Source of the DNA: Anaerolineae bacterium
GTDB lineage: Bacteria > Chloroflexota > Anaerolineae > Anaerolineales > Anaerolineaceae
NCBI GenBank assembly: GCA_013178095.1
Contig: JABLXK010000004.1
Span: 248,001 to 312,000, forward strand
Length of the DNA: 64,000 bases
Reading direction: 5' to 3'
Shown: in pieces, positions 3,634 to 11,306 of the stretch
How positions within the stretch are numbered: the stretch's first letter is position 1
Layout: every line of letters starts with the position of its first letter
Translations under genes and position numbers: made by a program
Notes under the pieces: model-generated
Seen by the model: only the letters and a program-made list of their open reading frames with translations
Told to the model about the DNA's origin: nothing
Databases searched by the model: none

Positions 3634-4698
3634 ATGCAGGAAATTATTCTCAGCGCTCATATCCATTCAGTCTACTCCGACGGGCTGCTCACCCCGCCGG
3701 AAATTGCCGGTGAAGCCGCCCGCTGCGGCCTTGATGTGGTCTTGATGAGTGACCACAACGTTTTTCCGCTTGGGTTCGATGGGTATTATGACTTTGGGCG
3801 GAAAAAGGTCCTTCTTTTAACCGGTGAAGAAATTCATGACCAAACCCGCCAGCCTCAGAAAAATCACATGTTGGCTTTTGGAATTCACCAGGATTTCTCC
3901 CGGCTGGCGCAGAACCCGCAGGCTTTGATCGATGCCATTGCCGAAGCTGGTGGACTGACGTTCCTTGCGCACGCCTACGACCCCGCCCTGCCTATGGTGG
4001 GCGAGAGTGATCTTTCCTGGGTGGATTGGAATATCCACGGGTTCACCGGTCTGGAACTCTGGAATAATTTGAGTGAGTTGAAGATCCGCGTGGGGAAAGC
4101 CTGGCAGTTGGCTTTGTATGCGCTGCTACCGCAATTCATGGCGCTGGAACCCCCTGCGCAAATCCGCGCGATCTGGGATGATTTTCTTGCAAACGGGCAG
4201 CGCGTGGTCGCCTTGGGCGGCGTGGATGCCCATACGCTTCCCCAGCATTTCGGCCCAATCCAGATCAACGTTTTCCCCTACCGCTACCACTTCCGCACCA
4301 TCCGCAACCACGTTTTGCTGGAATCCGAATTAAGCGGCAACGCGCAGGAAGATGAACGCGCGATCATGCAGGCCTTGCGCGAGGGTCATGCTTTCATCAG
4401 CAACGATATGGTCTATTCCGCGAATGGTTTCCGGTTTTGTCTGGATACGGGTGAAAAGCAGGTCGAAATGGGCGGTTCTTCCGTTTTTCGCGGGGGGCTT
4501 GCGCTGGCCGCGGATATTCCCGCAGCGGCCGAATGCCGTCTACTCTGCAATGGAAAAATTATCGACCGCGCGCACATCCACGGACGGCATCGTTGGCCGG
4601 TCGCACAGCCAGGAGTTTATCGTTTGGAATGTTACCGCCGTTTTCTCGGCAGAAAGCGCGGTTGGATTTTCAGCAACGCCATTGCGGTTACCCCTTGA
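3634..4698 (+). CDS. PHP-domain metal-dependent phosphoesterase
   Basis: A 354-residue protein of the polymerase-and-histidinol-phosphatase superfamily. The metal-binding motifs are visible: HIHSVYSDG at 9-17, SDHNVF near 40-45, an internal TFLAHAYDP and a late GGVDAHTLP. Members hydrolyse phosphoesters; the substrate here is not evident. It has no clear Shine-Dalgarno sequence and faces away from secG. Its 3' end overlaps the end of rtcB by 11 bases in convergent orientation, with no terminator between them. Confidence 0.8.
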   Translation: MQEIILSAHIHSVYSDGLLTPPEIAGEAARCGLDVVLMSDHNVFPLGFDGYYDFGRKKVLLLTGEEIHDQTRQPQKNHMLAFGIHQDFSRLAQNPQALIDAIAEAGGLTFLAHAYDPALPMVGESDLSWVDWNIHGFTGLELWNNLSELKIRVGKAWQLALYALLPQFMALEPPAQIRAIWDDFLANGQRVVALGGVDAHTLPQHFGPIQINVFPYRYHFRTIRNHVLLESELSGNAQEDERAIMQALREGHAFISNDMVYSANGFRFCLDTGEKQVEMGGSSVFRGGLALAADIPAAAECRLLCNGKIIDRAHIHGRHRWPVAQPGVYRLECYRRFLGRKRGWIFSNAIAVTP

Positions 4699-6124
4699 TC
4701 ACGGCCAGCGGCGTAAGTCTTGCGATGCGGCGGCCCAAACCGGCGCCTTCGATACAGGCAATTACCGCGTTGATATCTTTATAAGCCTGCGGGGCTTCTT
4801 CCGCCAGCCCGCCCAGTGAACCCGCTTGCACGTAAATACCTTCGGCCATCAACCTCGAGCGCAATTCGTCGCCGCGGATTTGATGTTTGGCTTGTGTGCG
4901 GCTGAGCACCCTGCCGGCGCCGTGGCTGCATGAGCCGCAGGATTTCTCCATTGCCGCGGCTGTTCCCGCCAGCACCCATGATTCCGTGCCCATGCTGCCG
5001 GGCACCAGCACCGGTTGACCGGTTTTTTGGAATCTCGCCGGTAAAGCGGGGTGATCCGGCCCAAACGCGCGCGTGGCACCTTTGCGGTGCACACACACGT
5101 TGATTTTTTCTCCTCCAAACTGGTGGGATTCGATCTTGCCGATGTTATGCGCCAGATCGTAGACGTTCAAAAGATGCGCCCCGGGGAAAAATCTCTCAAA
5201 AACCATGCGGGCGGAATGCCCCAATAGCTGCCGGTTGCAGAAGGCATAATTGGCCGCGCAGCGCATGGCAGCCAGGTACTGCTGTCCTTCGGGTGATTTG
5301 AGTGGTGCGCACACCAATTCCCGGTCTGGCAAGTCAATTTGATATTTGCGCGCAACCGTTTGGAATTTCTGGACGAAATCTGTGCAGATTTGATGGCCAA
5401 AACCGCGTGAGCCGGAGTGGATCTGCAGGGCAAGGTTGCCTTGATGGATGCCCATAGCAAGCGCCGCCGCTGAATCGAAAACTTCCGCGACCAGATCGAT
5501 CTCAATAAAATGATTGCCCGCGCCCAGCGAGCCGGCCTGGTCGACGCCGCGTTCCAGCGCGCGGCTGCTGACCGCCTCCATGTCTGCCCCTTCCATGCAG
5601 CCGCTGTCTTCCGTGGTCTCAATGTCGCCGGCAGTGGCATACCCGTTCTTCAAAGCCCATCCCGACCCTTGTTCGCAGACCGCTTTCAATTCCCTTGCTT
5701 TCAAGGCAACAATTCCCCTGCCGCCTACGCCGCTGGGGCAGGCGTGGTACAAAGCAGCCGTGAAATCAGTGATGGCAGTTTTAACATCCTGCAAAGGCAG
5801 CGTCGAACAAAGCAGCCGCACGCCGCAATTGATGTCATAGCCGATTGCCCCCGGAGAGATCACGCCGGTCTCATAATCCGCGGCGGCCACTCCGCCGATT
5901 GGAAATCCGTAACCCTGATGGACGTCCGGCATAACGCACACATTCCCGCGCAGCCCCGGCAAGGCGGCAGCGTTGGCAGCCTGTTCCAAGGACCGGTCCT
6001 GAAGCGCTTCGTTCAACATGCGCTCGCTGGCAAAAACGACCACCGGCACGCGCATGCCCGGTTGTGTCTCGCGAGGCAGGCGCCATTCAAAATCATTGAT
6101 CTTTTCAAATTGTCCGATCTTCAT
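4688..6124 (-). CDS. rtcB: RtcB, RNA-splicing ligase
   Basis: A GTP- and Mn-dependent RNA ligase joining 2',3'-cyclic phosphate or 3'-phosphate ends to 5'-OH ends. Diagnostic segments are MPDVHQGYGFPIGG, GYDINCGVRL (metal cysteine), GAGNHF, GSMGTESW and SHGAGRVLSR, whose histidine is the residue guanylylated in the family. Length is normal. I prefer the ATG at 6124, with AGGA upstream, over the TTG at 6130. It follows the archease gene after a few bases, so the ligase and its activator are one operon. In bacteria the pair serves RNA repair rather than tRNA splicing. Confidence 0.95.
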   Translation of the reverse strand: MKIGQFEKINDFEWRLPRETQPGMRVPVVVFASERMLNEALQDRSLEQAANAAALPGLRGNVCVMPDVHQGYGFPIGGVAAADYETGVISPGAIGYDINCGVRLLCSTLPLQDVKTAITDFTAALYHACPSGVGGRGIVALKARELKAVCEQGSGWALKNGYATAGDIETTEDSGCMEGADMEAVSSRALERGVDQAGSLGAGNHFIEIDLVAEVFDSAAALAMGIHQGNLALQIHSGSRGFGHQICTDFVQKFQTVARKYQIDLPDRELVCAPLKSPEGQQYLAAMRCAANYAFCNRQLLGHSARMVFERFFPGAHLLNVYDLAHNIGKIESHQFGGEKINVCVHRKGATRAFGPDHPALPARFQKTGQPVLVPGSMGTESWVLAGTAAAMEKSCGSCSHGAGRVLSRTQAKHQIRGDELRSRLMAEGIYVQAGSLGGLAEEAPQAYKDINAVIACIEGAGLGRRIARLTPLAVIKG

Positions 6125-6135
6125 CAGCAATCCTG

Positions 6136-6552
6136 TTACACATCAAAGACGATGCGAGTATGAAATCCTTCAGCATCCTGTACGATCACGAGGTCATTGA
6201 AAGTAGCAGCCTTGACTTCTTTTTGCTGGCCTGTTTTTTCCAGCATAAGCAAATCAGCCTCCAGCTGGTATTCATTTATTTCCAGGCTGATGAATTCACC
6301 CGCTTGATTGTTCGCTGCATGAAAAAGTAGTTCGTTCAGCAGTGATACCATTAATCCCTCGCGGTCTTCCGCAACCATCGAGATATGGATGTTTTCTACT
6401 TCCTTAGTCCCTTTACGGATGCCGAGAATATGATATAAACCTTTTGCAGCGTTTATGAAAAGCTCTTCAAGGTTTGGCGCAAACACATCCAATGCGATGT
6501 CAGCCGTATGGGGAACCTCTGCGAATCCGGAGAATGGGCGGTTGGCGTCCAC
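6136..6552 (-). CDS. archease, RtcB activator
   Basis: A 138-residue protein with the archease N-terminal signature EVPHTADIALDVFAP and a C-terminal VIVQDAEGFHTRIVFDV strand. Archease speeds guanylylation of RtcB and lets it turn over repeatedly, and rtcB follows directly. The start codon is GTG at 6552. A TATAAT at 6559-6564 places the transcription start at or next to this GTG, so the message is probably leaderless. The gene is divergent from the FHA gene at 6569 with only 16 bases between them. Confidence 0.9.
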   Translation of the reverse strand: MDANRPFSGFAEVPHTADIALDVFAPNLEELFINAAKGLYHILGIRKGTKEVENIHISMVAEDREGLMVSLLNELLFHAANNQAGEFISLEINEYQLEADLLMLEKTGQQKEVKAATFNDLVIVQDAEGFHTRIVFDV

Positions 6553-6558
6553 GTAACC

Positions 6559-6586
6559 ATTATACGATATGAAAATCGATCTTCAA
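6559..6586 (-). promoter_or_regulatory. promoter of archease-rtcB (leaderless)
   Basis: TTGAAG (6581-6586), 16 bases, TATAAT (6559-6564) on the minus strand. The predicted first transcribed base coincides with the GTG of archease. The -35 box lies inside the coding region of the divergent FHA gene. Confidence 0.5.
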
Positions 6587-7342
6587 AAAATCGAAACGAC
6601 GCTTAGAGAGTTCTTTGAGAAAGACCTCCAAATTGTCGCGCACAAAAATCCATTGCAGAACATTACCAATGAAATGATCTCCGCCCTGGAGAGAAATCTC
6701 AAAACCTCCGGCGACAAAGTTTTCGCTCCCAATATGTTTCGTATCTATATCCGCGATAAAAACTTGTTCGATCAGAACGATGTTGTTGAATGGAAAAATA
6801 CCATCCAGGAAATCATCAAGGAAATCGCGCGCGATAATTCTTTTCAACTGGCCGGCCCGCTGCACATCCAGGTTTTCAACAACCCGAAAATTGAAAAGGA
6901 ATTCGAGATTGCTGTCTCAAATTCATCCATCCCGACCGGGAAGACGATCAATTTTTTTACCAGCCCTGAAAGAAAAGAAAAACCACCGCTTTTCGGTTAC
7001 CTGATCACAGCCGACGAAAATTATTTCACAATAGATAAATCCATCACCAATATCGGCAGGCGGGAGGATAACGACCTGGTGATCGATAATCTGCGTGTTT
7101 CGCGGGTGCATGCACAAATCCGGCAAATGAATAACAAGCATATCCTCTTCGACCTGGATTCGACGGCAGGCACAAAAGTGAATGGCATCAAGATCCGCCA
7201 GCATACGCTCAATCACGGCGATGTCATCGAGATCGCGGATGTCCCTCTGATTTATGGTTCCGATCAGGAACTGCCTGCGATTACGGAAAAATCGCATAAA
7301 ACCAGGGTGCTTTCCGAAAAAAAACCAAAGGGGCAGGCATGA
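6569..7342 (+). CDS. FhaA-like protein (DUF3662 plus FHA domain)
   Basis: A 257-residue cytoplasmic protein. Residues about 1-115 form the DUF3662/FhaA N-terminal domain, with LREFFEKDLQ near 11-20 and PNMFRIYIRDKN near 51-62. Residues about 160-235 are an FHA domain with the phosphothreonine-binding pattern IGRREDNDLVI then RVSRVHAQI. In Actinobacteria FhaA binds phosphorylated partners such as MviN and controls peptidoglycan synthesis. The next gene overlaps by 4 bases (ATGA). A cell-wall fusion gene lies two genes downstream, which supports a similar role. No Ser/Thr kinase gene is visible in the window. Confidence 0.85.
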   Translation: MKIDLQKIETTLREFFEKDLQIVAHKNPLQNITNEMISALERNLKTSGDKVFAPNMFRIYIRDKNLFDQNDVVEWKNTIQEIIKEIARDNSFQLAGPLHIQVFNNPKIEKEFEIAVSNSSIPTGKTINFFTSPERKEKPPLFGYLITADENYFTIDKSITNIGRREDNDLVIDNLRVSRVHAQIRQMNNKHILFDLDSTAGTKVNGIKIRQHTLNHGDVIEIADVPLIYGSDQELPAITEKSHKTRVLSEKKPKGQA

Positions 7343-7764
7343 ACGGCGCGGTTTTAATCCTGGTATTGCGGGGTTTGTTCGCGATTTCTCTTTTTGTCTT
7401 CCTTGGATGGATCTGTTACATCTTGTGGAAGGATTTGCGCCAAACCATTAAAAACAGCACGGAATATCAAATCCCTGCCATCAACCTGACGATCCATGAG
7501 AGCGGGATTTCCTATTCATTCAACCAGCCGGAAATTTTTATCGGTAGAGATCCGCAAGCCGATCTGTACATCCCGGATGATACGCTCTCCGGGATCCATG
7601 CGCGTGTATTTTATAAAAATAACCATTGGATGGTTGAAGACCTTCAATCAACCAATGGCACCCAGATCAACGAAGAGCGCTTGTCCACCCCGTCCGTTTT
7701 GATCGATGGGGATGAAATGGCTTGCGGACGGATCCGGCTGCACGTCCATCTCAATCAGGGTTAA
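7339..7764 (+). CDS. FhaB-like membrane-anchored FHA protein
   Basis: A 141-residue protein with one N-terminal membrane helix (about 5-28) and a cytoplasmic FHA domain (about 65-135): IFIGRDPQADLYI, then SGIHARVFYKN and LQSTNGTQIN. This is the layout of FhaB/FipA, which recruits phosphorylated division proteins to the membrane. It overlaps the FhaA-like gene by 4 bases, so the two are translationally coupled. The arginine, serine and histidine positions that bind phosphothreonine are kept. Confidence 0.85.
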   Translation: MNGAVLILVLRGLFAISLFVFLGWICYILWKDLRQTIKNSTEYQIPAINLTIHESGISYSFNQPEIFIGRDPQADLYIPDDTLSGIHARVFYKNNHWMVEDLQSTNGTQINEERLSTPSVLIDGDEMACGRIRLHVHLNQG

Positions 7765-7834: not shown

Positions 7835-8698
7835 ATGGAAAATAAACCGGTCTTGGCTGTGATTGGCGGTTCGGGGTTATACAACTTTTCAGCTCTGAAG
7901 AACACCCAATCCATCGAAGTGGACACGCCTTTCGGCAAACCCTCGTCCCCCATCCTCTTGGGCGAGCTGTCCGGTCGGAAAGTAGCTTTCCTGGCCCGTC
8001 ATGGCATCGGACACGTTTTCCTGCCCTCCGAAGTGAATTACCGCGCCAATATTTACGCGCTAAAAACATTGGGGGTCACGCGCGTTGTCAGCGTTTCTGC
8101 TTGCGGTTCATTGCGCGAGGATTATTCTCCCGGCCAAATTGTCATCCCCGACCAGTTAGTCGATCTCACCCATAAGCGCGAACGGACATTTTTCGGTGAC
8201 GGCATTGTGGCTCATATCGGCGCTGCCGACCCCTATTGCGAGCGCCTTTCCAACCTGGCTTATAATGCCTTGCTCGATAGCGGCGCAACCATTCACAAGG
8301 GTGGAACTTACATTACCATCGAAGGGCCCCGTTTTTCCACCAAAGCGGAATCCAACCTGTACCGCGAATGGGGTATGTCGGTGATCGGCATGACCGCCTG
8401 CCCCGAGGCCATTCTGGCCCGTGAGGCGGAAATGTGCTACACGACTATGGCGCACGTGACCGACTATGATGTTTGGCATGTCAGCGAAGAACCGGTCACA
8501 GTGGAAATGGTGGTGCGCGTGTTGCAGAAAAACACCCAGATCGCGCAGGAATCCATCCAAAGGTTGGTTGAGAGCCTGCCGGAAGAAAACACTTGCCCCT
8601 GCCAGCATATCCTGAAAGATTCCATCATGACCCAGCCCGATAAAATTCCTTTGGAAACCAGAAAAAAGCTGGATATTTTGATCAATAAATATATATAA
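7835..8698 (+). CDS. mtnP: S-methyl-5'-thioadenosine phosphorylase
   Basis: Cleaves methylthioadenosine to adenine and methylthioribose-1-phosphate in methionine salvage and polyamine metabolism. Family motifs are GGSGLYNF near the N-terminus, FLARHGIGH, SVSACGSLRE and TIEGPRFSTKAE. The C-terminal ATDYD-like segment reads HVTDYDVW; aspartates here select 6-aminopurines, supporting MTAP over the 6-oxopurine phosphorylase encoded at 21014. A good SD (GGAG) precedes the ATG, and a TATAAT at 7780-7785 may give it its own promoter. Its position between the FHA genes and the cell-wall fusion gene has no obvious metabolic reason. Confidence 0.88.
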   Translation: MENKPVLAVIGGSGLYNFSALKNTQSIEVDTPFGKPSSPILLGELSGRKVAFLARHGIGHVFLPSEVNYRANIYALKTLGVTRVVSVSACGSLREDYSPGQIVIPDQLVDLTHKRERTFFGDGIVAHIGAADPYCERLSNLAYNALLDSGATIHKGGTYITIEGPRFSTKAESNLYREWGMSVIGMTACPEAILAREAEMCYTTMAHVTDYDVWHVSEEPVTVEMVVRVLQKNTQIAQESIQRLVESLPEENTCPCQHILKDSIMTQPDKIPLETRKKLDILINKYI

Positions 8699-8699
8699 A

Positions 8700-11306
8700 G
8701 TGCAAATCTTTCCAACCACAAAAAACCGCAGCAGTGCGCTCCAAAGCCGATTATTCAGCCTGGCAGCCATCTGTTTGTTTCTACTGGCTATCGTCCTGAC
8801 ACTTTCTCCTGTTGTCCGCTATCGCTCCTGGAACGTGGACTTGCGCTGGTCGCATTGGGCGGCTTTTTTCATTTGGCTGGCCGGCGCCAGCTCTATTCAC
8901 CGCCTCACGCTGCGGCGTCTGGAAAATTGGGACGCGCTCATCCTGCCGGCGGCATTCCTGTTAGCCGGCTGGGGCATGCTCACCATTTGGCGGTTGAGCA
9001 TCATTTTCGGAATCCGCCAGACCTTGTGGTACATGGTCAGCATCGGCATGGCCGCCCTCTACTTCAGGATAGACGATGTGCTGGATATCCTGCGGCGTTT
9101 CAAATACGTCATCCTGACGCTGGGATTGATCCTGGCTATCCTGACCTTTTTCTTTGGAACATACCCCGGTGGTAACGGCCCCAATCTTTGGCTGGGGTTT
9201 CACGGAATCTATTTCCAGCCTTCTGAATTGCTGAAGTTGATTCTGATCATCTACCTCGCGGCTTTTTTCTCGGATAAATATTTCCTCCGCTTTAACCTGC
9301 TCCAAACCATCCTGCCTTCACTGATCCTTTTCTTGTCCGCTCTGTTCATCCTGGTGGGGCAGCGCGACATGGGAACCTCGCTCATCTTCATCGTGATTTA
9401 CGTTGGCATGCTCTATATAATCTTCGGGAAAAAGCGCATCCTGGCTTTCGGAGCGGTGGTGGTAGCGTTGGCGGCCGCGGTAGGTTACTTCTTGATCGAT
9501 CTCATCCGCATCCGTTTTCAGGCCTGGACACAGCCATGGCTGGACCCGCAGTCCGGCTCGTACCAGATCATCCAATCCACCATCGCCATTGCCGCCGGTG
9601 GGATTTTGGGCAGCGGCATCGGCATGGGGTACCCCGGTCTGGTTCCCATTCCGCACTCAGATTTTATTTACTCCTCGGTTATTGAAGAAACCGGAATGGT
9701 CGGTTCTATTGCGTTGATCGGTTTATTTACGCTGCTGATGTTCAGGGGCATTCAGGCGGCAATTAAGACCAATAACAAGTATTATCGCTTCCTGGCTTCC
9801 GGCATCACTATCTATCTGACATTTCAGACATTTCTGATCGTGGGCGGAAACATTCGCCTGCTGCCCATCACCGGGGTGACGCTGCCATTGATGTCTTACG
9901 GCGGTTCTTCCCTGGTCACTTCCATGTTGGCCATCCTGATACTGGTTAAAATCAGCGATTGCCGTGCAGACCTGGCGCGCGATCTTCACAGCTTGCTTCC
10001 CTTTCGCAATCTGGCCGCCCTGTGCTCCATCGGCCTGGCCTCCCTAGCATTGGTAACAGGATGGTGGGCAGTGGTGCGATCCCATGATCTGCAGCTCCGC
10101 CGCGACAATGCCAGGAATTTTATAGCCGCCCGTTACGTGGAACGTGGTTCAATCCTCGATCGCAACAATCAAGCCATCACCGCCACCTTGGGCTCCGTGG
10201 GAAATTTCTCGTATAACCTGCAATACCCGGCGCTCAGCAATACCATTGGTTATTTTGACTACGCCTTCGGTATGTCCAACCTCGAAGAAAAATACAACGA
10301 TTATCTCAGCGGCGAAAGGGGCTATTCCACTCCTGAGTTGTGGTTCAATTACCTGCTGTACAACCAGCCGCTGCCCGGCAGAGATATCCGCCTTACTCTC
10401 GACCTTCCCACTCAAAGCAGCCTGGATAATGCGCTGGGTGAAAGTCAGGGAGCCGCCTTGGTGATGAACGCTCAAACCGGTGAGATCCTGGCAATCTCCA
10501 GCTCACCCGCCTACAATGCCAACACCCTGGCCAGGAACTTTACGACCTGGAAAAGCGACGCAACCTCCCCTTTGCTCAACCGTGCCTCGCAAGGGTCTTA
10601 CCCTCTGGGCGAGCTGCTCACCCCTTTTCTGATTTCGGAAAATGAGGCGCTGCTTCAAACGGATTATTCCGAAACTGCCGGGGCAACCTCTCCCGCCTGC
10701 GCCATTAGGGATCAGCAGCCCCAATTATGGTCTGAAGCAGTCGCCAGTGGCTGCCGCGCCGCGCTGCGCCTGGCTGCGAATGGACAGAATGGTCCTTATA
10801 TTACCAGCCTGGTCTCCAAGTATGGCTTGACTGCTGTTTTTAATCTCGGATTGCCGGAAAATCCGGTTCAAAAATTAGATGAAGAGAGTAGTTGGCAAAA
10901 TTTGGTGTTGGGGCAAAATCGCATCCGGGTCAGCCCGCTGCAGGTAGCTTATGCTTTCAGTATCTTCAGCAACCAGGGGCGTCAATCTTCTCCGCATCTC
11001 CTGGCGGCTGTAAATCTGCAGCAAGAAGGTTGGGTGGAAGTGGAACAGGCAAGCGGTACGCAAGTGATCACGGCGGAAATCGCGGAAGATATTTCACGGC
11101 TGTTGGCCTCGCAGGAAATATCCGGTTGGGAACTGACCACGGAATCGCAAGATGCGAATGGCAGTTACGCGTGGTACGTGGCCGGCACGCCCGTCAATTG
11201 GCCGGGGACTCCAATGGTGCTGGTGATCGTGCGCGAGGATATGCAAGCAGAAAACCTGCAAGCGCTCGGCCGGCAGGTTTTCCAATCAATCACAAATTCG
11301 CTCTAA
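8700..11306 (+). CDS. SEDS glycosyltransferase (FtsW/RodA) fused to a degenerate PBP-like transpeptidase domain
   Basis: An 868-residue two-part protein. Residues about 15-430 are a polytopic SEDS domain. It keeps the critical aspartate in PHSDFIYSSVIEE (D321) and the signature PITGVTLPLMSYGGSS, so peptidoglycan polymerase activity is plausible. Residues about 440-868 resemble a PbpA-type class B PBP: a pedestal segment VERGSILDRNNQAI, then GAALVMNAQTGEILAISSSP, and GQNRIRVSPLQVAYAF. The active-site SxxK position reads YPLGELLTP (E638 where Ser is expected). The SxN position reads SGC and no KTG motif is found. Actinobacterial rodA and pbpA are adjacent separate genes. The start is a GTG one base after mtnP. 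The domain calls are secure; inactivity is inferred from missing residues. Confidence 0.88.
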   Translation: MQIFPTTKNRSSALQSRLFSLAAICLFLLAIVLTLSPVVRYRSWNVDLRWSHWAAFFIWLAGASSIHRLTLRRLENWDALILPAAFLLAGWGMLTIWRLSIIFGIRQTLWYMVSIGMAALYFRIDDVLDILRRFKYVILTLGLILAILTFFFGTYPGGNGPNLWLGFHGIYFQPSELLKLILIIYLAAFFSDKYFLRFNLLQTILPSLILFLSALFILVGQRDMGTSLIFIVIYVGMLYIIFGKKRILAFGAVVVALAAAVGYFLIDLIRIRFQAWTQPWLDPQSGSYQIIQSTIAIAAGGILGSGIGMGYPGLVPIPHSDFIYSSVIEETGMVGSIALIGLFTLLMFRGIQAAIKTNNKYYRFLASGITIYLTFQTFLIVGGNIRLLPITGVTLPLMSYGGSSLVTSMLAILILVKISDCRADLARDLHSLLPFRNLAALCSIGLASLALVTGWWAVVRSHDLQLRRDNARNFIAARYVERGSILDRNNQAITATLGSVGNFSYNLQYPALSNTIGYFDYAFGMSNLEEKYNDYLSGERGYSTPELWFNYLLYNQPLPGRDIRLTLDLPTQSSLDNALGESQGAALVMNAQTGEILAISSSPAYNANTLARNFTTWKSDATSPLLNRASQGSYPLGELLTPFLISENEALLQTDYSETAGATSPACAIRDQQPQLWSEAVASGCRAALRLAANGQNGPYITSLVSKYGLTAVFNLGLPENPVQKLDEESSWQNLVLGQNRIRVSPLQVAYAFSIFSNQGRQSSPHLLAAVNLQQEGWVEVEQASGTQVITAEIAEDISRLLASQEISGWELTTESQDANGSYAWYVAGTPVNWPGTPMVLVIVREDMQAENLQALGRQVFQSITNSL

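What the first reader, a model, noticed from the sequence alone, without database searches (positions are those of the whole stretch)
8700..11306. SEDS glycosyltransferase fused to a transpeptidase domain that has lost all active-site motifs
The SEDS part keeps its catalytic aspartate (D321 in PHSDFIY). The fused PBP-like part reads YPLGELLTP where SxxK is expected, SGC where SxN is expected, and has no KTG motif. In known pairs the PBP both cross-links and activates the SEDS partner. Here the second function may remain in a single polypeptide while cross-linking is done elsewhere.
Basis: partly seen in the sequence, partly recalled or inferred. Interest (0 to 1): 0.75.

Follow-up and report, generated by a model that had tools for sequence, protein, structure and literature searches.

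The report
Wall polymerase fused to dead crosslinker
A cell-wall strand-making enzyme is joined in one protein to a partner that normally cross-links the strands but has lost every catalytic residue, and the loss is shared by most of a large class of bacteria (Anaerolineae), so evolution seems to have separated the partner's switching role from its chemistry.

Summary
ORF 8700-11306 (+, 868 aa) is a SEDS polymerase with intact catalytic residues, fused to a PbpA-type class B PBP. The PBP half contains no SxxK and no K[STD]G; the motif positions read E638..T641, G684-C685-R686 and about L812-T-T. This is inherited, not local: 0 of 62 PBP domains of the Anaerolineae-type group keep SxxK, against 24 of 24 orthologues elsewhere in Chloroflexota. 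On a SEDS tree 41 of 42 degenerate rows form one clade, and one clade for all is not rejected. The dead domain still folds (pLDDT 90; Z 39 to M. tuberculosis PbpA) and is under purifying selection. At matched SEDS divergence the pedestal is as conserved as in intact pairs, while the rest of the TP domain is relaxed. The genome also encodes FtsW-FtsI, RodA-PBP2, a MecA_N PBP, a class A PBP and five YkuD proteins. Best explanation: a third, FHA-linked RodA-PbpA pair whose PBP is now an allosteric pseudo-PBP, with cross-linking in trans. Sequence and predicted-fold facts are shown; activation and in-trans cross-linking are inferred. Natural SEDS-PBP fusions were known; a class-wide dead one was not found in the papers searched.

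The parts
8700..11306 (+). SEDS::pseudo-PBP fusion gene, 868 aa, GTG start
8925..9959 (+). SEDS glycosyltransferase core (residues 76-420)
   Evidence: PF01098; Z 36.8 to FtsW 8bh1_A; 81 of 345 columns at least 90% conserved
9660..9662 (+). catalytic Asp D321 of the SEDS half
   Evidence: invariant in 38 homologues; equivalent to RodA Asp262 / FtsW D297 (PMC10449877, PMC8765783)
9996..10076 (+). transmembrane helix of the PBP half (residues 433-459)
   Evidence: helix 433-459 in the model
10125..10379 (+). pedestal / PBP_dimer_2 region (residues 476-560)
   Evidence: PF21922; 19 columns at least 90% conserved in 461-560; constraint equal to intact pairs
10380..11303 (+). degenerate transpeptidase domain (residues 561-868)
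   Evidence: PF00905; PBP half of the model matches PbpA 3lo7, Z 39.0, rmsd 2.6 over 367 residues
10611..10622 (+). former SxxK position, now E638-L-L-T641
10749..10757 (+). former SxN position, now G684-C685-R686
11124..11147 (+). former KTG strand (residues 809-816, GWELTTES), no Lys
   Evidence: exact register alignment-dependent
10698..10700 (+). C667, co-conserved with C685 (probable disulfide)
   Evidence: both Cys present in 35 of 38 homologues; same pair in the M. tuberculosis PbpA alignment
10752..10754 (+). C685, at the middle position of the former SxN
6569..7342 (+). FhaA-like FHA protein, conserved neighbour
   Evidence: PF00498, PF12401; synteny
7339..7764 (+). FhaB-like FHA protein, conserved neighbour
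   Evidence: PF00498; synteny
7835..8698 (+). methylthioadenosine phosphorylase-like gene, ends just before the fusion gene; conserved neighbour
   Evidence: PF01048; synteny

Best explanation
This is the third SEDS-class B PBP pair of the cell, orthologous to the FHA-linked RodA-PbpA pair of Actinobacteria and other Chloroflexota. Its PBP is a pseudo-PBP: TM helix, pedestal and transpeptidase fold are kept to bind the polymerase and switch it on and off, while catalysis is lost. The SEDS half polymerises lipid II, and other enzymes of the cell cross-link the strands. The most attractive candidate is the MecA_N-type class B PBP, as B. subtilis PBP3 does for catalytically dead PBP 2B. Shown here: motif loss, its phylogenetic extent, predicted fold retention, purifying selection, intact SEDS residues. 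Inferred: polymerase activity, allosteric control, cross-linking in trans and by which enzyme.
For: SEDS catalytic residues invariant. 0/62 domains keep SxxK against 24/24 in intact relatives. 41 degenerate rows form one clade, and one clade for all 42 is not rejected (AU 0.65). At SEDS identity 35-50% pedestal identity is 0.36 in both degenerate and intact pairs, while the TP part after SxxK drops from 0.39 to 0.23. dN/dS is 0.11 SEDS, 0.13 pedestal, 0.12 TP-N, 0.20 rest of TP within one genus. Model pLDDT 89.8, pTM 0.83, PBP half Z 39 to PbpA. Unfused degenerate PBPs still sit next to the SEDS gene. Own genome has FtsI, PBP2, MecA_N PBP, a class A PBP and 5 YkuD proteins; MecA_N is found in 41/43 degenerate carriers. 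Literature: RodA is stimulated by the PBP2 TM helix alone (PMC10449877); PBP2 both activates and inhibits RodA through two interfaces (PMC10257715); pedestal mutations activate RodA (PMC6207328); PBP 2B S309A supports division if PBP3 is present (PMC5656894).
Against: No biochemical data. The later part of the TP domain evolves about twice as fast as the SEDS half, and one genus has lost about 60 residues around SxN, so part of the domain may be eroding. MecA_N also occurs in 12 of 24 intact carriers and in class members without the fusion, so the association may be shared ancestry. A few relatives show no orthologue (G005, G008, G016, G019, G050), so it is not universally needed.
Confidence: 0.62

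Rival explanations
1. The PBP half is a decaying remnant with no function, dragged along because it is fused to a needed polymerase.
For: TP half is relaxed relative to intact pairs and truncated in one genus; G138 has the SEDS gene with no PBP detected downstream.
Against: dN/dS 0.12-0.20 in all PBP regions; pedestal as constrained as in intact pairs; confident full fold; truncated form still predicted to fold; Cys pair kept; unfused copies retained beside the SEDS gene.
Confidence: 0.17
2. Only the TM helix and pedestal matter as activator; the TP fold is kept merely as a structural spacer or docking platform for a trans transpeptidase or another divisome/elongasome protein.
For: TM helix of PBP2 alone stimulates RodA (PMC10449877); PBP 2B has a structural role independent of catalysis (PMC5656894); constraint falls off C-terminally.
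Against: Several C-terminal positions (P746, G760, W825, E846) are invariant, but no partner is known.
Confidence: 0.13
3. The domain uses a different catalytic centre (for example the conserved cysteines) and still cross-links or hydrolyses.
For: C667 and C685 are nearly invariant.
Against: The two cysteines nearly always occur together, align with a Cys pair of M. tuberculosis PbpA and occur in several intact relatives, which points to a disulfide; the former SxxK positions are variable across the clade.
Confidence: 0.03

Closest known systems
Actinobacterial RodA-PbpA pair (FHA-linked locus)
   Same: Synteny FHA-FHA-rodA-pbpA; PBP_dimer_2 domain; best structural matches are PbpA-type proteins
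   Different: Here fused, and PbpA has lost SxxK, SxN and KTG; no PASTA match found in this genome
T. thermophilus and E. coli RodA-PBP2 complexes
   Same: SEDS polymerase with a PBP joined by TM helix and pedestal; two regulatory interfaces described (PMC10257715, PMC10449877)
   Different: Those PBP2s are active transpeptidases and separate chains
B. subtilis PBP 2B S309A with PBP3 (PMC5656894)
   Same: Catalytically dead class B PBP keeps its structural role and a MecA_N PBP supplies cross-linking
   Different: A laboratory point mutant of a division PBP; here a natural, class-wide loss in a third SEDS pair, and the trans enzyme is not identified
Natural SEDS-PBP single ORFs (cited in PMC10449877 with the Rhodococcus RHA1 genome) and G190/L078 found here
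   Same: SEDS and class B PBP in one polypeptide
   Different: L078 keeps PGSTFK, SSN and KTG; the motifs of the Rhodococcus protein were not checked

Membership tests
SEDS glycosyltransferase (FtsW/RodA) | PF01098 domain | tested here: met
   E 1.7e-69
SEDS glycosyltransferase (FtsW/RodA) | Catalytic Asp in ECL4 and conserved QPSE...K, QRD | tested here: met
   D321, E176, D223 invariant, K179 at least 90%
SEDS glycosyltransferase (FtsW/RodA) | Lipid II polymerisation | not testable with these tools
   needs biochemistry
Class B PBP transpeptidase | Pedestal plus transpeptidase fold | tested here: met
   PF21922 and PF00905; Z 39 to PbpA
Class B PBP transpeptidase | SxxK nucleophile motif | tested here: not met
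   E638..T641; no SxxK in residues 431-868
Class B PBP transpeptidase | SxN motif | tested here: not met
   G684-C685-R686
Class B PBP transpeptidase | KTG motif | tested here: not met
   no K[STD]G in residues 431-868
Class B PBP transpeptidase | Covalent penicillin binding | not testable with these tools
   needs a Bocillin assay
FHA-linked RodA-PbpA pair | FHA genes upstream of rodA-pbpA | tested here: met
FHA-linked RodA-PbpA pair | PASTA kinase in the genome | tested here: inconclusive
   no PASTA match in G000, which is 94% complete
FHA-linked RodA-PbpA pair | SEDS half groups with the RodAs of pbpA-linked pairs, away from FtsW and the MreC-linked RodA | tested here: met
   tree rooted on the genome's own FtsW and RodA; the two outgroup rows are long branches

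The most novel reading that the evidence does not exclude
A whole bacterial class has turned one SEDS-PBP synthase into a pure polymerase with a built-in allosteric pseudo-PBP, and its strands are cross-linked in trans by a MecA_N-type PBP: an ancient natural version of the engineered PBP 2B(S309A)/PBP3 arrangement, leaving a polymerase unit that beta-lactams cannot acylate.
Probability: 0.3. Interest if true: 0.8.

Novelty: new variant of a known kind. Interest (0 to 1): 0.62.

Why it matters
Whether the PBP partner's control of a SEDS polymerase can be separated from its transpeptidase chemistry has been studied with point mutants and truncations. Here evolution appears to have made the separation once and kept it across a class, giving dozens of natural proteins in which only non-catalytic roles of the PBP can be under selection. 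The residues still conserved in these domains are a ready map of what the polymerase needs from its partner. It also warns that a transpeptidase-domain annotation in Anaerolineae genomes does not mean a penicillin target.

Tried and rejected
Two independent losses (L076/G068 falls among intact rows in the free tree) were considered, but holding all degenerate rows together gives a higher likelihood (AU 0.65), so I do not claim convergence. A conserved Trp replacing the KTG Lys (W810 in MAFFT) is not claimed, because the HMM alignments to solved PBPs put W810 before the motif. A cysteine nucleophile was judged unlikely (see rivals). The MecA_N association is kept only as a lead. A profile of the PBP half alone could not be used for a collection scan; the full-length profile was used instead and mostly returned SEDS genes of other lineages. 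Literature searches for a described dead SEDS-PBP fusion, or for Chloroflexota cell-wall synthases, returned nothing on point; most subscription papers are not held.

Full report
WHAT IS THERE. The ORF at 8700-11306 (+) is 868 aa with a GTG start. Its first half is a SEDS glycosyltransferase (PF01098, E 1.7e-69), its second half a PBP_dimer_2 pedestal and a weak Transpeptidase match. The SEDS half keeps D321, E176, K179 and D223, invariant or nearly so in 38 homologues; D321 corresponds to E. coli RodA Asp262, whose Ala mutant is inactive (PMC10449877). The PBP half has no SxxK and no K[STD]G anywhere. Against solved E. coli PBP2 the SxxK becomes E638-L-L-T641.

HOW GENERAL. 56 of 61 related genomes encode an orthologue, mostly as one ORF of about 870 aa. 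In a sample of 350 Chloroflexota, orthologues outside the class are mostly split genes. Of 62 PBP domains from the Anaerolineae-type group none keeps SxxK, one keeps the SxN Ser and none the KTG Lys. Of 24 orthologues from other Chloroflexota (including L087, a class member that has kept the motifs) 24 keep SxxK and SxN, and 23 KTG, the exception being a gap in the alignment row. Fused and intact also exists (L078), as do split and degenerate (L054-L057, L085, L150, L153), so fusion and decay are separable. On a SEDS tree 41 degenerate rows form one clade (SH-aLRT 99); adding the last one, L076, is not rejected. Leptolinea sp. HRD-7 (AP024710) is a named member.

IS THE DEAD DOMAIN KEPT. The AlphaFold2 model has pLDDT 89.8 and pTM 0.83. 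The PBP half superposes on M. tuberculosis PbpA 3lo7 with Z 39.0, rmsd 2.6 over 367 residues, and the SEDS half on FtsW 8bh1_A with Z 36.8. C667 and C685 occur together in 35 of 38 homologues and align with a Cys pair of PbpA. Within one genus dN/dS is 0.106 (SEDS), 0.128 (pedestal), 0.121 (N-terminal TP) and 0.197 (rest of TP); dS is near saturation, so these are approximate. The control that matters most: for pairs with SEDS identity 35-50%, pedestal identity is 0.36 in both degenerate and intact sets, N-terminal TP 0.44 against 0.50, and the rest of the TP domain 0.23 against 0.39. So the pedestal has lost no constraint and the catalytic part has lost much. One genus has even deleted the SxN region (806 aa), yet the remainder is predicted to fold (pLDDT 84.9).

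CONTEXT. The genes FhaA-like, FhaB-like and MTA phosphorylase lie directly upstream and are conserved with the fusion; intact rodA-pbpA pairs in other Chloroflexota and Actinobacteria also follow FHA genes. The same genome has FtsI and FtsW in a dcw cluster with mraZ, mraW and mur genes, a MreC-PBP2-MinC-ParA/MinD-type-RodA cluster, a MecA_N class B PBP, a class A PBP and five YkuD proteins. FtsI, PBP2 and the MecA_N PBP keep SxxK and KTG. Cross-linking capacity is therefore present in trans. MecA_N occurs in 41 of 43 degenerate carriers, 12 of 24 verified intact ones and 64 of 298 other Chloroflexota; shared ancestry may explain this.

HOW IT PROBABLY WORKS. RodA is stimulated by the TM helix of PBP2 alone (PMC10449877); PBP2 activates through one interface and inhibits through another, toggled by TP-domain opening (PMC10257715); pedestal changes hyperactivate RodA, and synthetic RodA-PBP2 fusions work (PMC6207328). 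B. subtilis lives with catalytically dead PBP 2B as long as MecA_N-type PBP3 is present (PMC5656894). Together with the selection pattern this makes an allosteric pseudo-PBP with cross-linking in trans the most likely reading (about 0.6). Rivals are a decaying remnant (0.17) and a pure docking platform (0.13).

NOVELTY. Natural SEDS-PBP fusions are already mentioned (PMC10449877) and catalytically dead class B PBPs have been engineered. A class-wide fused pseudo-PBP, consistent with a single origin, was not found in the papers I could search, so I call it a new variant of a known kind.

Noticed in passing
L088 (G138, same class): The MTA-phosphorylase-linked SEDS gene (449 aa) has no PBP detected in 2.8 kb downstream; possibly the PBP was lost entirely. 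L059 and L066 look similar but contig ends or frameshifts are not excluded.
   Followed up: partly
L074:1436-3703 (own genome, contig C20): 755-aa MecA_N class B PBP with intact motifs; MecA_N is far commoner in carriers of the dead fusion than in the rest of the phylum.
   Followed up: partly
own genome G000: No PASTA domain match although an FHA-linked RodA-PbpA locus is present.
   Followed up: no
G209:C12:367114-369051 and G416:C2:1101659-1103897: Copies of the fusion carry in-frame stops or are split; sequencing error or pseudogene not resolved.
   Followed up: no
L078 (G190, other class): A natural RodA-PbpA fusion that keeps PGSTFK, SSN and KTG, a useful active counterpart for experiments.
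   Followed up: partly
window 4688-6552 (-): rtcB followed by an archease gene, a compact RNA-ligase pair.
   Followed up: no
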